A DNA stretch of 49,264 bases, taken from Acidovorax sp. Leaf191 (GTDB lineage: Bacteria > Pseudomonadota > Gammaproteobacteria > Burkholderiales > Burkholderiaceae_C). The position numbers were made by a program, and so were the translations under genes. Positions within the stretch are counted from its first letter, which is position 1. Every line of letters starts with the position of its first letter. Below the pieces are notes generated by a model. The model saw only the letters and a program-made list of their open reading frames with translations, made no database searches and was not told the DNA's origin. The stretch is taken from NCBI RefSeq assembly GCF_001424425.1, contig NZ_LMPT01000010.1, positions 1 through 49,264 of the forward strand. The letters are read 5' to 3'. Shown piece by piece: positions 18,727 to 31,910 of the stretch.

Positions 18727-18784
18727 CCAAAAGTTGTCTGGCTTAAAGGAAAATAGCGGCTCAGTTCCCTTCGAACCCCCACAA

Positions 18785-18884
18785 GGACTTGTGCAACAGG
18801 GCTCCAGCTAGGCATTTTCGGCGCAGACAGTACTTGCGTACGGCAAGCCGAAATAACGACGCTGGAGCCCTGTTTCACAAGTCC
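18785..18884 (+). repeat. Large structured hairpin element, copy A
   Basis: Outer arms of 24 bases (18785-18808 and 18861-18884) match at 23 positions and enclose a 52-base core. The core reads TAGGC, an inner arm, GCAGACAGTA, a short apical hairpin, GTACGGCAAG, the complementary inner arm and AACGAC. The inner arms TTTCGGC/GCCGAAA pair perfectly, and GTAC pairs with GTAC at the tip. The element at 31321-31419, read on the minus strand, has the same loop sequences but different and equally complementary stems. There is no T run after the right arm, so it is not a simple terminator. Confidence 0.85.
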
Positions 18885-18899
18885 CGCTAAAAAAATACC

Positions 18900-19823
18900 A
18901 TGGGCATAAGCCAGTACATCAAGGAAATTGGGCGCGGCGCGCGCGGCGCCAAGCCGCTTACGCGCGAGCAGGCCACCGACCTGTTCGGCCAGGTGCTGGA
19001 CGGCCACGCGAGCGACCTGGAGGTCGGCGCCTTCTGCCTGGCCATGCGCATCAAGGGCGAGACGGCCGAGGAGATGTGCGGCTTTCTCGACGCCACGCAC
19101 CAGCGCCTGTCCCTGCTGCCTGCCACCGACCGCCCGCTCATCGTGCTGCCCAGCTACAACGGCGCGCGCAAGCTGCCGGTGCTCACCCCACTGCTGGCCC
19201 TGCTGCTGGCCCGCAAAGGCTTACCCGTGCTGCTGCACGGCATGCGCACCGAGGCGCGCCGCATCCTGGCGTCGGATGTGCTGCTCGCGCTCGACATACC
19301 TGCGCTGACAGCTCCTGAAAAGATAGCAAACGGAACCGTGCGCCACATCCACACCCAGCACCTGCATGCGGGCCTGGCCCGCCTGCTGGCCGTGCGCGAG
19401 GTGGTGGGCCTGCGCAACCCGGGGCACAGCGTGGTCAAGCTGATGAGCCCGTGCGCTGGGCCGTCGGTGGTGGTCACCGCGTACACCCACCCAGAGTACT
19501 TCGAGATGCTGCAGACCACCTTCCGCACGCTGGGCATGACCGCCCTGCTCTCGCGCGGGCTCGAAGGCGAAGTCGCCACCGACCCGCGCCGCACCCCGCG
19601 CTACGACGGCTTCGTCCACGGCACACATGAGTTGCTTGAGGCCCAGCAGCCCGGCACCGCCAGCGAGGTGCCCGGCCTGCCCGCCGAGATCGACGTGGCC
19701 ACCACCGCCGCCTACACCCGCCGCGTGCTGGCGGGCGAGCTGCCCAGTCCGCCTGCCATCGAAAAACAGGTGGAACACATCTTGCACCTAGCGGATCAAA
19801 CAGTCCCGGAGACATCGCCATGA
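18900..19823 (+). CDS. ybiB: YbiB family protein (TrpD2-like, glycosyltransferase family 3 fold)
   Basis: 307 residues, similar throughout to the DNA-binding protein YbiB/TrpD2, a relative of anthranilate phosphoribosyltransferase that lacks that activity. Recognisable parts are LTREQATDLFGQVLDG, EVGAFCLAMRIKGETAEEM, LIVLPSYNGARKLPVLTPL, GLPVLLHGMRTEARRIL and LMSPCAGPSVVVTAYTHPEY. The ATG is preceded by an A run without a clear ribosome site, just after hairpin element A. Residues about 135-145 (ALTAPEKIANG) are encoded by a piece of a palindromic repeat. The stop overlaps the cobA start (ATGA). Why it travels with nitrate genes is not clear. Confidence 0.85.
   Translation: MGISQYIKEIGRGARGAKPLTREQATDLFGQVLDGHASDLEVGAFCLAMRIKGETAEEMCGFLDATHQRLSLLPATDRPLIVLPSYNGARKLPVLTPLLALLLARKGLPVLLHGMRTEARRILASDVLLALDIPALTAPEKIANGTVRHIHTQHLHAGLARLLAVREVVGLRNPGHSVVKLMSPCAGPSVVVTAYTHPEYFEMLQTTFRTLGMTALLSRGLEGEVATDPRRTPRYDGFVHGTHELLEAQQPGTASEVPGLPAEIDVATTAAYTRRVLAGELPSPPAIEKQVEHILHLADQTVPETSP
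19302..19331. repeat. Short palindromic element, copy 2 (partial, inside ybiB)
   Basis: GCGCTGACAGCT followed by CCTGAAAAGATAGCAAACG matches the right half of the element family (GCGCTnnCAGCT, then TTTTnATAGCAAA in intergenic copies). It is in frame and adds about 10 residues to YbiB. Confidence 0.6.
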
Positions 19824-27399: not shown

Positions 27400-30300
27400 C
27401 TACGCCGTCGCAACCGCCCTCACTTGCAGCGCCCGCTGCTGCAACGCCCAGTCTTCCAGCTGCGCCACCGCCAGCGGCCGGCTGAAGTGGTAGCCCTGCA
27501 GCTCCTCGCAGTCGAGCACGCCCAGCACCTGCGCGGTGGCCAGGTCTTCCACGCCCTCGGCCACGATCTTGAGCCCCAGCGTGTGGCCCAGCGCGATGAT
27601 GGCGCGCGTGATGGCCATGTCGGCGGGGTTGTTCAGCATGTCGCGCACAAAGGATTTGTCGACCTTCAGGCGGTCGATGTCAAAGCGCTTGAGGTAGGCC
27701 AGGCTCGAATAGCCCGTGCCGAAATCGTCGATGGACAGTTGCACCCCCAGCGACTTGAGCGCCGCCAGTTGCTGCTCGGCCGCGTGGGCGTTGTCCATCA
27801 GTTGCGACTCGGTGATCTCCAGCTCCAGCCGGTGGGCGGGCATGCCGGTGCGGGCCAGCAGCGCCTCGATGTCGGGCACGAGCAGCGGGTCGGCCATCTG
27901 CGCGGCCGACAGGTTGACGGACACCGAGATGTCCGCCAGCGGGTGCCGGGCGCCACCAGTACCGCCACCACTGCCACCGCCGCCATCCCCCGCTGAGCGC
28001 GGCAGCGCCTGCCAGCGCGCCCACTGCTCGCAGGCCTGCTGCAGCACCCAGCTGCCGATGGCGCGGATCATGCCGGTCTCTTCGGCGATGGGGATGAACT
28101 CGCTGGGCGGTATGGCGCCGATGGACGGGTTGTTCCAGCGCAGCAGCGCTTCCACCCCCAGCAGGCGCCCGCCCTTGGCCGCCAGGCGCGGCTGGTAGTG
28201 CAGGCTCAGCTCGTGGCGCTCCAGCGCGCGGCGCAGGTGCTGCTCCATGGTCTGGCGCGCCAGGGCGCGCTGGTCGGTCTCCACCGAATAGAAGCGCGCC
28301 GCGTCACGGCCGGTGGTCTTGGCCTCGTACATGGCGGCGTCGGCGCGGCGCATGAGCTCGTCGATGTCGCCGCCATCCTCGGGGTACACGGCGATGCCCA
28401 CGCTGCACGACACGTTCAGCTCGTGCCCCTCCACCGGGTGGCTCTGGCGGATGAGCGGGATCAGCCGCCGCTCCACCAGCTGCTGCACGTCGTCGTGCCC
28501 GGCCACGTCGCGCATCACCACCACGAACTCGTCGCCGCCCAGGCGGCTCACGGTGTCGCGGCTGCGCACGGCCTGCGTGAGGCGTCCGGCCACCGAGCGC
28601 AGCAGCCCGTCGCCGATGTGGTGGCCCAGCGTGTCGTTGATGGCCTTGAAGCGGTCCAGGTCGATGAACAGCACGGCCACCTTCTCGCCGGTGATCGGCG
28701 CCTGCGCCAGCGCCAGCTGCAGGCGCTGCACGCACAGCGACCGGTTGGGCAGCTCGGTCAGCACGTCGTGGTGCGCCAGGAACTGGATGCGCTCTTCATT
28801 GAGCTTGCGGTCGGTGATGTCGATGGCGATGCCGATGTGGTTGGCCACGGCCCCGCCCTTGCTCTCGCGCACGGCCGACACCATGAGCCAGGCCGGGTAG
28901 GTCTCGCCGGAGCGGCGGCGAAACCTCACCTCGCCCTGCCAGGATTCCTTGTCGAGCATGGTGCGGCTGATCTGCGCCGACAGCGGCTCGCCGCTCGCCT
29001 CTTCCAGCAAGAAGCCCAGGTCCTCGCCGATGACCTCGTAGAAGTCGTAGTGCGTGCTGCGGCAGAACGCCTTGTTCACGCTGATGATCTGCTGCTCGGC
29101 GTTCATGATGATGATGCCCTCGGACGAGGCCTCGAACACCTTGGCCCACAGCTCCAGCCGCTGCTCCATGACCTTGAGCACGTTGATCGGCGTGAACGCC
29201 GTGAGCACCGCGTCGCGGCCCTGAAACTGCAGGCGCCGCGCCGACAGCACGGCCCACGAAGGCTCGGTGCTGCCCTTCCAGCGCACCTCGAACTCATCGA
29301 CCGAGCCCTGGTCCGCCAGGCGCTGGAAGAACCGCGCCCGCACGCCGGGCTCCAGCCCGACGGCCCAGGGGTCGGTCTTGCGCCCGCCCAGCCAGTGGCC
29401 GGCCGGCGCGTTCGAATGCAGCACCTCGTGCTCGGGCACCGAGGTGACGACCATCGGGATCGGGAACGCCTCCACCAGCTCGCGCTGCGCCTCGGCCGCG
29501 CGGGCGCTGGCGGCCAGCTCCTGCTGCAGCACGCGGTCGCGGTCGAGCTGCGAGAGCATCTCGTTGAACGCGGTGACCAGGCGGCCGATCTCGTCGCGGC
29601 TCGACCAGTGCGCGCGCAGCGTGTGGTCGCCGCTCTTGCGCACCTCGTCGGCCACGCGCGCCAGCTGCTGCAGCGGCTTGGCGATCTGCCGGGCCACCAG
29701 CGTCACCAGGCTCAGGATGCAGCCCAGCAGCACCAGCGCCGTGCCCAGGTGCAGCCACATGCGGGCATAGAGCCCGTCCACGCGGCGGTTCAGCAGCCGC
29801 TCCAGGTCGGTGATGCCCACGCCCCAGGCATCGCGCAGCGCGCCCAGCACCTGCGCCTGCTGCGCGCCCACCTGGGCCAGCGTCAGGCGCGACTCCCCCG
29901 CCGCCATGCCCTGCAGCAGCGCCTGAAAGCTCTCCAGCGAGGCCTTCAATGCCTCGCGCTGCGCCATGAGGGCGGTGCGCATCTCAGGCGATCCGGCGAT
30001 GAACGCCTGGTTGTAGTCGGACTCGATGCCCAGCATCACCGCGTCGAGCCGGCCCACCAGCGTGAGCAGCTCGGACGACCACTGCGGCCCGCGCCCCGTG
30101 GGCGCCGCGTGCAGGAACACCACGGTGTCGTGCACCGCCTGCAGCAACTCGGGAAACCGCAGCACCACCAGCGACATGCCGTAGTAGCTGTCCAGGTCCG
30201 GGTCCAGGATCAGGTTGGACTGGTTGCCCACGGTGGTGAGCAGCTCGCGCCCCTCGCGCAGCAGCTGGCTGCGCAGCCGGGTCAGCGCGATGGGGTCGGT

Positions 30301-30666
30301 GGCGGGCGGCGGGCTTTGCACCAGCTGCTGCAGCACTGAACTGAAGCGCTCGCCTACCTCGTGCGTGTGCAACTGGTCGTCGTAGGCCTGGCGCACACCC
30401 GCCAGCCGCGTGAGCACGTCGGCCACCAGGGGCGGCTGCTGCTGCGGGGCTGCGAGGAACTGGCCCATCAGCCCATCGCGCAGGACCGCCGCGTAGGTGG
30501 TGCCCACGATCTCCTTGCGCGTGAAGTCGATGGCCACGTACTTCTCGTGGATCAGGATGCTGGAAACGTAGATCACCGCCGACAGGTCGAGCAGGTAGAT
30601 GAGCATGAGCTTGCGGCCCACACTGAGGCGGCCCAGCCAGCCCGAAACGCGGTGCATGAATGCCAT
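27400..30666 (-). CDS. HAMP-PAS-GGDEF-EAL cyclic-di-GMP protein with N-terminal sensor
   Basis: 1088 residues. A first membrane helix (about 18-40) and a second (about 300-325) bracket a helical periplasmic sensor of roughly 260 residues. HAMP follows (ARQIAKPLQQLARVADEVRK), then two PAS-like domains (about 395-640). The GGDEF domain has an intact RLGGDEFVVVM (about 708-718), and the EAL domain has GVEALLRW (about 836-843), EITESQLMDN, DDFGTGYSSLAYLKRF and VAEGVED, so both active sites look competent. A run of Gly (GDGGGGSGGGTGGA) sits inside the EAL domain, a low-complexity insertion. ATG 30666 is used. It should make and/or degrade c-di-GMP in response to an extracellular signal. Confidence 0.93.
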   Translation of the reverse strand: MAFMHRVSGWLGRLSVGRKLMLIYLLDLSAVIYVSSILIHEKYVAIDFTRKEIVGTTYAAVLRDGLMGQFLAAPQQQPPLVADVLTRLAGVRQAYDDQLHTHEVGERFSSVLQQLVQSPPPATDPIALTRLRSQLLREGRELLTTVGNQSNLILDPDLDSYYGMSLVVLRFPELLQAVHDTVVFLHAAPTGRGPQWSSELLTLVGRLDAVMLGIESDYNQAFIAGSPEMRTALMAQREALKASLESFQALLQGMAAGESRLTLAQVGAQQAQVLGALRDAWGVGITDLERLLNRRVDGLYARMWLHLGTALVLLGCILSLVTLVARQIAKPLQQLARVADEVRKSGDHTLRAHWSSRDEIGRLVTAFNEMLSQLDRDRVLQQELAASARAAEAQRELVEAFPIPMVVTSVPEHEVLHSNAPAGHWLGGRKTDPWAVGLEPGVRARFFQRLADQGSVDEFEVRWKGSTEPSWAVLSARRLQFQGRDAVLTAFTPINVLKVMEQRLELWAKVFEASSEGIIIMNAEQQIISVNKAFCRSTHYDFYEVIGEDLGFLLEEASGEPLSAQISRTMLDKESWQGEVRFRRRSGETYPAWLMVSAVRESKGGAVANHIGIAIDITDRKLNEERIQFLAHHDVLTELPNRSLCVQRLQLALAQAPITGEKVAVLFIDLDRFKAINDTLGHHIGDGLLRSVAGRLTQAVRSRDTVSRLGGDEFVVVMRDVAGHDDVQQLVERRLIPLIRQSHPVEGHELNVSCSVGIAVYPEDGGDIDELMRRADAAMYEAKTTGRDAARFYSVETDQRALARQTMEQHLRRALERHELSLHYQPRLAAKGGRLLGVEALLRWNNPSIGAIPPSEFIPIAEETGMIRAIGSWVLQQACEQWARWQALPRSAGDGGGGSGGGTGGARHPLADISVSVNLSAAQMADPLLVPDIEALLARTGMPAHRLELEITESQLMDNAHAAEQQLAALKSLGVQLSIDDFGTGYSSLAYLKRFDIDRLKVDKSFVRDMLNNPADMAITRAIIALGHTLGLKIVAEGVEDLATAQVLGVLDCEELQGYHFSRPLAVAQLEDWALQQRALQVRAVATA

Positions 30667-31027: not shown

Positions 31028-31240
31028 ATGACTACGATCCGCGTAAAAGAAAACGAACCCTTTGACGTCGCACTGCGCCGCTTCAAGCGCACCATTGAAA
31101 AGCTCGGCCTGCTGACCGACCTGCGCGCCCGTGAGTTCTACGAAAAGCCCACCGCCGAGCGCAAGCGCAAGAAGGCAGCCGCCGTGAAGCGTCACTACAA
31201 GCGCGTTCGCAGCATGCAACTGCCCAAGAAGCTGTACTAA
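31028..31240 (+). CDS. rpsU: 30S ribosomal protein S21
   Basis: 70 residues, very basic, starting [20 protein letters not shown] and ending with [20 protein letters not shown]. This matches bS21 over its full length. S21 binds the 30S platform near the anti-Shine-Dalgarno region of 16S rRNA. As in many bS21 genes, no strong ribosome site precedes the ATG. A terminator follows, so yqeY is not simply part of the same message despite the usual rpsU-yqeY order. Confidence 0.97.
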
Positions 31241-31320: not shown

Positions 31321-31419
31321 GGTCTGCCAAAAGGCTTTCTGGCGTCGTTGCAACGCCTTGCCGTAGCGGGACTACTGTCTGCGGCGTTGACGCCTAGCCA
31401 GAAAGCCTTTTGGCAAACC
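31321..31419 (-). repeat. Large structured hairpin element, copy B
   Basis: Outer arms of 23 bases (31321-31343 and 31397-31419) match at 22 positions around a 53-base core. On the minus strand the core reads TAGGC, inner arm, GCAGACAGTA, apical hairpin, CTACGGCAAG, inner arm, AACGAC. The loop strings equal those of copy A at 18785. The inner stem is CAACGCC/GGCGTTG and the apical stem GTAG/CTAC, both different from copy A and both still complementary. The outer arms share no similarity with copy A. Confidence 0.85.
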
Positions 31420-31463: not shown

Positions 31464-31910
31464 ATGAGCCTCAAGGAAAAGATCACCGAAGACATGAAGA
31501 CCGCCATGCGCGCCAAGGACAGCGAGCGCCTGGGCACCATCCGCCTGCTGCAGGCCGCGATGAAGCAAAAGGAAGTGGACGAACGCATCGAGCTGGACGA
31601 CGTGGCGGTCGTGGCCATCGTGGACAAGCTGATCAAGCAGCGCAAGGACTCCATCACCGCCTTTGAAGGCGCGGGCCGCCAGGACCTGGCCGACAAGGAA
31701 AAGTCGGAAATGGCCGTGCTGCAGGCCTACCTGCCCGAGCGCATGTCGGCCGACGAGACGCTGGCCGCCGTCAAGGCCATCGTGGCCGAGCTGGGCGCTG
31801 CAGGCCCCGGCGACATGGGCAAGGTCATGGGCGTGGTCAAGACCCGCCTGGCCGGCAAGGCCGACATGGGCCAGGTCTCTGCCGCCGTGAAGGCTGCGCT
31901 GGCGGGCTGA
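31464..31910 (+). CDS. yqeY: GatB/YqeY domain protein
   Basis: 148 residues, all helical: MSLKEKITEDMKTAMRAKDS, LGTIRLLQAAMKQKEVDERI, YLPERMSADETLAAVKAIV and MGKVMGVVKTRLAGKADMG. This is full-length YqeY, related to the tRNA-binding tail domain of the GatB amidotransferase subunit. It probably interacts with tRNA, but its role is not settled. AAGGA lies upstream of the ATG. The rpsU-yqeY order is common in proteobacteria, here separated by a terminator and hairpin element B. Confidence 0.92.
   Translation: MSLKEKITEDMKTAMRAKDSERLGTIRLLQAAMKQKEVDERIELDDVAVVAIVDKLIKQRKDSITAFEGAGRQDLADKEKSEMAVLQAYLPERMSADETLAAVKAIVAELGAAGPGDMGKVMGVVKTRLAGKADMGQVSAAVKAALAG

What the first reader, a model, noticed from the sequence alone, without database searches (positions are those of the whole stretch)
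18785..18884. Two copies of a structured hairpin with conserved loops and fully compensated stems
This copy and the one at 31321-31419 (minus strand) share TAGGC, GCAGACAGTA, ACGGCAAG and AACGAC in the same order and spacing. Every helix differs in sequence yet stays paired: inner stem TTTCGGC/GCCGAAA versus CAACGCC/GGCGTTG, and tip GTAC/GTAC versus GTAG/CTAC. The outer stems of 23-24 pairs are unrelated. Conserved unpaired strands with covarying helices are the signature of a selected RNA or folded single-stranded DNA, not of a plain decayed repeat. I cannot name it as any described element.
Basis: seen in the sequence. Interest (0 to 1): 0.9.

Follow-up and report, generated by a model that had tools for sequence, protein, structure and literature searches.

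The report
Correia-like folded hairpin carried by transposons
Both window hairpins are copies of one folded module that also forms the core of the Correia elements of Neisseria and recurs in many Beta- and Gammaproteobacteria, where it is likely carried by miniature transposons and would act as a folded RNA for a still unknown cell factor.

Summary
In detail: both copies fold far better than shuffles (z about -9), keep their loops, and differ in their helices while staying paired. They are not a two-copy oddity: a covariance model matches 93 of 150 genomes of the window's family and 98 of 250 of its order, 17 times in the window's genome and 107 times in a Diaphorobacter. The same fold and loops form the core of Neisseria Correia elements (CREE), so 'no described element' fails; yet a 2016 paper calls CREE unique to Neisseria, and here they are one branch of a wide superfamily. 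Outer arms differ because repeat families differ: one family shares its ends with an 864-bp IS5-family insertion sequence and shows 3-bp TNA target duplications. Mismatches are strand-asymmetric (G.T 71, A.C 23), and one inherited locus shows 6 double compensations and no broken pair, so one strand is selected to fold. Whether it acts as RNA or as single-stranded DNA is open; I lean to RNA. Bordetella BRE repeats may be the same element, but their sequence could not be read. Verdict: a new, very widespread variant of a known kind, with an unexplained folded core.

The parts
18784..18883 (+). Copy 1 of the folded module, whole
   Evidence: model match 91.4 bits; fold
18786..18808 (+). copy 1 outer stem, 5' arm (3' arm 18861-18883)
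18809..18815 (+). copy 1 internal loop A, 5' side TAGGCAT (3' side TAACGAC 18854-18860)
18816..18822 (+). copy 1 inner stem, 5' arm (3' arm 18847-18853)
18823..18829 (+). copy 1 internal loop B, 5' side GCAGACA (3' side GGCAA 18842-18846)
18830..18841 (+). copy 1 tip stem GTAC/GTAC and its loop
31321..31421 (-). Copy 2 of the folded module, whole
   Evidence: model match 99.3 bits; fold
31397..31419 (-). copy 2 outer stem, 5' arm (3' arm 31321-31343)
31390..31396 (-). copy 2 internal loop A, 5' side TAGGCGT (3' side CAACGAC 31344-31350)
31383..31389 (-). copy 2 inner stem, 5' arm (3' arm 31351-31357)
31376..31382 (-). copy 2 internal loop B, 5' side GCAGACA (3' side GGCAA 31358-31362)
31363..31375 (-). 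copy 2 tip stem GTAG/CTAC and its loop
15889..18726 (+). gene before copy 1: molybdopterin oxidoreductase, nitrate-reductase-like, with BFD domain; stop 57 nt before the module
18900..19823 (+). gene after copy 1: YbiB; start 16 nt after the module
31028..31240 (+). gene on one side of copy 2: ribosomal protein S21 (rpsU)
31464..31910 (+). gene on the other side of copy 2: YqeY-like protein

Best explanation
The two hairpins are copies of one strand-specific folded module, shared with the Correia elements of Neisseria, that is likely carried by miniature transposons moved in trans through their outer arms by insertion-sequence transposases, and that likely acts, once its top strand is transcribed, as a folded RNA bound or processed by a conserved cell factor. 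Shown: the shared fold and loops, covariation in the helices, selection on one strand, very wide spread, different outer arms in different repeat families, and for one family the same ends as an IS5-family insertion sequence plus 3-bp TNA duplications. Inferred: that the other families move in the same way, that RNA rather than single-stranded DNA is the acting form, and that one conserved partner reads the loops. RNase III cleavage of the long outer stem, reported for Correia transcripts, is the likely first step, and the released core would be the active part.
For: Fold and loops. Covariation; at the inherited rpsU-yqeY locus 34 pairs give 25 unchanged, 3 changed on one side and still paired, 6 double compensations, 0 broken, with 2 of 27 loop columns different. 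Strand: single mismatches in 99 of 110 elements are G.T 71, A.C 23, A.G 80, C.T 13. Loop positions covary (26 with 76: MI 0.82, largest of 500 shuffles 0.19). Same core in Neisseria between published Correia ends: 10 of 12 core matches tested, model scores 62-85 bits for the short form. Mobility of one family: nested insertion with TAA on both sides, identical 3-bp flanks, all TTA or TAA, in 6 of 15 elements, IS with the same ends and an IS5-family transposase. RNA level by literature: RNase III binds and cuts Correia hairpins in mRNA (PMC2649163, passages); RNA-seq reads at 91 of 96 gonococcal sites where Correia elements lie near predicted small RNAs, 74 of these 91 with low coverage (PMC5039591, passages).
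Against: Tandem-gene neighbours: top strand antisense 46, sense 19 and antisense 29, sense 20, which is not what an element working in its neighbours' mRNA would show. In Diaphorobacter 74 of 96 copies follow one replication orientation, which an RNA role does not predict. No expression data for the window copies. 9 of 15 elements with GAG..CTC ends show no identical 3-bp flanks, and the IS itself has TAA on one side and TTA on the other. An IS with matching ends was found for one family only.
Confidence: 0.45

Rival explanations
1. The folded top strand acts as single-stranded DNA, as a substrate in transposition or at the replication fork, much as REP hairpins are read by Y1 (RAYT) transposases.
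For: Orientation follows replication: 74 of 96 listed copies in Diaphorobacter, with switches at the GC-skew switches, and 27 of 33 in its congener (8 of 500 shuffles as good). The G.T preference is equally expected for folded DNA. Inverted twin modules in some genomes resemble REP doublets. 10 of 12 genomes searched hold a Y1 transposase gene.
Against: No module match within the 20 loci around Y1 genes, E up to 1. A third genome shows no orientation bias in the 11 of 21 copies listed; in 102 diverse loci the skew lean is weak, 59 against 42. The one family with known ends uses a DDE (IS5-family) transposase, which needs no folded strand.
Confidence: 0.3
2. The elements are ordinary miniature transposons; the arms stay complementary by template switching during replication (quasi-palindrome correction) and the loops look conserved because copies are recent.
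For: Copies are mobile and numerous; template switching makes double changes without selection (recalled mechanism).
Against: Template switching is blind to strand, but mismatches are not: G.T 71 against A.C 23, A.G 80 against C.T 13. At the inherited rpsU-yqeY locus the loops changed less than the stems. The core is shared by families with unrelated arms in many genera.
Confidence: 0.12
3. The module works in cis at gene ends, as a two-way transcription terminator or mRNA-end stabiliser.
For: In Diaphorobacter 76 of 84 copies lie between tandem or convergent genes and 2 between divergent ones; 33 of 49 tandem copies start 45-115 nt past a stop codon.
Against: The simple scan finds no terminator-like site made by either window copy, though it only allows loops of 3-8 bases. 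Copy 1 ends 16 nt before the ybiB start. 14 of 129 diverse loci are divergent. Siting behind genes is also what survives of random insertions.
Confidence: 0.1

Closest known systems
Correia repeat enclosed element (CREE, NEMIS) of Neisseria
   Same: Core letters GCAGACAGTA..TACGGCAAG, AAGGCG and CAACG, same fold, small size, intergenic siting, high copy number; Neisseria copies score 62-85 bits with a model built without the published Correia sequences. The alignment behind the model did hold two Neisseria-type rows, L095 and L144.
   Different: Window copies lack the TATAGTGG Correia ends and have other arms; published Correia elements are described as unique to Neisseria (PMC5039591, passages) and are often upstream of genes.
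BRE, Beta-proteobacterial repeat element (Hot et al. 2011, PMC3110155)
   Same: About 90 bp, intergenic, repeated and sometimes tandem, in Comamonadaceae and other Betaproteobacteria, origin of an 80-nt RNA antisense to both neighbours (abstract, passages and section 14 seen).
   Different: Unknown: its sequence stands in a supplement that could not be opened. I think it more likely than not a member.
[quoted passage not shown]
   Same: The GAGCSGCTAACAAAAC family shares its ends with an 864-bp IS5-family IS, has TNA duplications and many copies.
   Different: The interior is not left over from that IS and is shared by families with other ends.
REP / BIME / REPIN palindromes
   Same: Dispersed extragenic palindromes behind genes, at times as inverted doublets.
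   Different: REPs are 20-40 bp with a GTAG or CGTC tag (PMC3733652, passages); no module copy lies beside a Y1 transposase gene in 20 loci.

Membership tests
Correia repeat enclosed element (CREE) | characteristic core | tested here: met
   same loops and fold; named Neisseria copies match the model
Correia repeat enclosed element (CREE) | 26-bp Correia repeat ends (TATAGTGGATTAA..) | tested here: not met
   window copies have AGGACTTGTGCAAC and AGGGTTTGCCAAAA arms; Neisseria copies have the ends at 10 of 12 core matches
Correia repeat enclosed element (CREE) | RNase III substrate when transcribed | not testable with these tools
   reported for Neisseria (PMC2649163, passages)
MITE of an IS5-family IS | ends shared with an autonomous IS | tested here: inconclusive
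   met for the GAGCSGCTAACAAAAC family; no IS found with the arms of the window copies
MITE of an IS5-family IS | target-site duplication | tested here: inconclusive
   6 of 15 elements of the GAG..CTC type and one nested insertion; none seen by eye at the window copies
REP (RAYT-associated) | element copies beside a Y1 transposase gene | tested here: not met
   0 model matches in 20 loci; loop motifs not found as a set by pattern in 8 loci
BRE of Bordetella | sequence of the ~90-bp repeat | not testable with these tools
   sequence only in a supplement
any Rfam family | match at gathering score | tested here: not met
   0 matches in the window

The most novel reading that the evidence does not exclude
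The module is a portable folded-strand gene: one ancient RNA (or single-stranded DNA) device captured by many unrelated transposon ends, spread through most genera of a family and beyond the order, in places as inverted twins inside elements of about 175-290 bp, and kept by selection because one conserved cell protein reads its loops; Correia elements are only its Neisseria branch.
Probability: 0.4. Interest if true: 0.9.

Novelty: new variant of a known kind. Interest (0 to 1): 0.72.

Why it matters
Correia elements have been treated as a Neisseria speciality whose mover and core function are unknown. Placing them in a superfamily with a covarying, strand-specific core gives a structure to test, a candidate type of mover (IS5-family transposases) for one branch, and non-pathogenic hosts in which to test it. 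It also means that a common structured element, absent from Rfam, sits between genes in a large share of Burkholderiales genomes.

Tried and rejected
Y1/RAYT transposase as mover: genes exist in 10 of 12 genomes but no module match lies in the 20 loci around them (pattern check of 8 of these loci). IS ends for other arm families: the DDE loci L455-L458, L460-L462 and L470 have other inverted repeats. Arms as per-copy inverted duplications of host DNA: rejected, since arms form families within one genome. BRE identity: the paper's text, a literature search and model searches in the families of G305 and G363 did not lead to a genome that I could recognise as Bordetella. Plasmids: 7, 1 and 2 records matched three queries, several of them megaplasmid-sized. 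A ProQ link: listing only, no paper read. Correia outside Neisseria in print: searches in the open-access library; their listings showed no paper that describes it, but I read passages of five papers only (PMC3110155 with its section 14, PMC2649163, PMC3733652, PMC10969869, PMC5039591), so this is no proof of absence.

Weak points of my own counts: the script counted A.C cells twice, so its printed AC totals are wrong; summing its per-pair list gives G.T 165 and A.C 45 in 81 rows of A3. In the Diaphorobacter set A2 A.C-type cells outnumber G.T cells because of the two outermost columns (144 cells); without the four outermost pairs it is A.C 14 and G.T 24. Alignment A1 was picked for good pairing (34 of 50 picked sequences used), so one search is biased, and model R1 leans the same way in A3. 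Gene contexts rest on my own ORF caller. One search used 46 of the 49 tandem copies. Orientation used the 96 of 107 matches whose places one search listed and that lie on the main chromosome. p-values ignore relatedness.

Full report
What is there. Two hairpins of about 100 nt lie at window 18784-18883 (+) and 31421-31321 (-). Each has an outer stem (23 model pairs), an internal loop A (TAGGCAT or TAGGCGT opposite TAACGAC or CAACGAC), an inner stem of 7 pairs, an internal loop B (GCAGACA opposite GGCAA) and a 4-bp tip stem with a short loop. They fold far better than shuffles. Copy 1 lies between a nitrate-reductase-like molybdopterin oxidoreductase and ybiB, 57 nt past the stop and 16 nt before the next start, top strand sense. 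Copy 2 lies between rpsU and yqeY, top strand antisense.

How common. It matches 93 of 150 genomes and 87 of 141 genera of the family, 98 of 250 genomes of the order, 71 of 116, 29 of 150 and 58 of 121 genomes of three other families (the last at E 0.01, the others at E 0.001), and 47 of 274 genomes of the class. Only a limited number of candidates per genome is scored, so copy numbers are lower bounds. E-values of the short calibration are rough. The matches outside the order that I printed mostly keep recognisable loops (AAGGCG, GCAG, CAAG, CAACGCCG), with loop B more changed.

Correia elements. Loci named Neisseria sicca, gonorrhoeae, bergeri and elongata, and viral contigs, carry the exact core between published Correia ends: 10 of 12 core matches in 10 loci have one of the four published end variants; the two in L155 have none letter for letter. 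The short forms score 62-85 bits with R1; a 151-base match in L155 scores 31.6. At its record end L155 also shows the published IHF string of the long Correia form, placed after GTACGG, that is in loop B; the GCAGACA side is cut off there (1 of 24 loci searched has the string). PMC5039591 (passages) states that Correia elements are unique to Neisseria.

Selection on the fold. Model matches, mostly one best match per genome (94 from 82 loci), pair in 90.2% of cells against 55.9% in shuffles; all 34 pairs show at least one change on both sides; even the tip stem swaps GTAC, GTGC, GTAG and GTGG. These matches were found with the model and lean to it. Sets defined by the core letters alone agree: inner stem 5.20 of 7 pairs against 3.54 with shuffled partners in 159 elements; outer arms 14.78 of 22 against 8.66 in 110 non-redundant elements, of which 59 lie above the 99th percentile of the shuffles and 51 do not. 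At one inherited locus, rpsU-yqeY, checked by tblastn of both neighbours, two congeners differ by 6 double compensations and 3 one-sided changes between a Watson-Crick and a G-U pair, with no broken pair among 34, while 2 of 27 loop columns differ.

Which strand. Template switching at palindromes can keep arms complementary without selection, but it is blind to strand. Isolated mismatches in 99 of 110 elements, read on the strand with GCAGACA, are G.T 71, A.C 23, A.G 80 and C.T 13. So the strand with GCAGACA is the one whose folding matters. Two pairs of loop positions covary without being Watson-Crick throughout: 26 with 76 (A:C 43, T:A 27, G:A 6 of 82) and 40 with 62 (C:A 63, A:G 7), which suggests structured internal loops. 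G.T tolerance fits RNA and single-stranded DNA alike.

Ends and mobility. Outer arms fall into families. Of 11 further loci read from the window's genome, seven have arms of the GAGCGGCT.ACAAAACTC type, some with one arm degraded, three of the GCGGATTTGCATTCA type, one is apart; the two window copies add two more types. In Paracidovorax oryzae a GAGCCGC-type element sits inside an older copy of the copy-2 type at the same rpsU-yqeY locus, with TAA on both sides. Of 15 elements with recognisable GAG..CTC ends, 6 have identical 3-bp flanks, all TTA or TAA. In genome G222, which has 84 and 72 matches to these ends on the two strands with up to one mismatch, an 864-bp insertion sequence with these ends holds an IS5-family transposase in two frames, DUF4096 and DDE_Tnp_1; its flanks are TAA and TTA, so not a clean duplication. 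In two genomes outside the order, 20 copies sit in units of about 175-290 bp with shared outer repeats, and 9 of 17 loci outside the order show two modules in inverted orientation close together. The module is thus carried by several kinds of element.

Where copies sit. In Diaphorobacter, of 84 copies 49 lie between tandem genes (29 antisense, 20 sense), 27 between convergent, 2 between divergent genes, 5 inside genes, 1 at an edge. Across 129 loci: tandem antisense 46, tandem sense 19, tandem unassigned 14, convergent 26, divergent 14, inside genes 7, one-sided 3. In Diaphorobacter 74 of 96 listed copies have their top strand on the G-poor strand, with switches at the skew switches; in its congener 27 of 33 split the same way in position, without a skew check; a third genome shows no bias in 11 of 21 copies; in 102 diverse loci the lean is weak, 59 against 42.

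Mechanism. Most likely IS5-type and other transposases move the elements by their ends, and the top-strand RNA folds, is cut by RNase III in the outer stem as reported for Correia transcripts (PMC2649163, passages), and shows its two loops to a conserved factor. The movement step is shown by sequence for one family; the RNA steps are inferred. The antisense lean and the replication lean are not explained by this and keep a single-stranded-DNA role open.

Membership. The core makes the window copies relatives of Correia elements; their ends do not, so I do not file them as Correia elements. They fail the REP test for a neighbouring Y1 transposase. BRE of Bordetella may belong here (size, hosts, tandem arrays, an 80-nt RNA antisense to its neighbours), but its sequence was out of reach.

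Noticed in passing
L067, L074, L133, L135, L140: Module copies in records named Avibacterium, Streptococcus (two) and Candidatus Regiella; four of the five (not L140) score 45.7-72.9 bits. Transfer or contamination not examined.
   Followed up: partly
L485:1206-2546: Two short elements with GAG..GCTAACAAAA ends flank a stretch of about 1.1 kb in G222, like a composite transposon; content not read.
   Followed up: no
left outer arms of A1 and A3 rows with CAGCGAAGCGG, CTCGTAGAG or CTCGCAGAG: Several arm families carry an extra small hairpin closed by a C(GNA)G triloop on one side only; such triloops are recalled to be unusually stable in DNA.
   Followed up: no
L197:1501-2042, L042:1838-2077: Tandem arrays of the module, period about 110 and 107 bp.
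   Followed up: no
L217-L296 (G018): Conserved flanks beyond the hairpin: left part with GCAGCG..GGGCGC..GAA, right part TCAAAACGA..CCAATCGAAGCC..GGCTTCG, a further small hairpin.
   Followed up: partly
L305 (own genome), L302-L304, L301: A single Y1_Tnp (RAYT-like) gene per genome in these relatives, with no module copy nearby.
   Followed up: partly
window 27400-30666: Large GGDEF/EAL protein with HAMP and PAS domains, unrelated to the finding.
   Followed up: no
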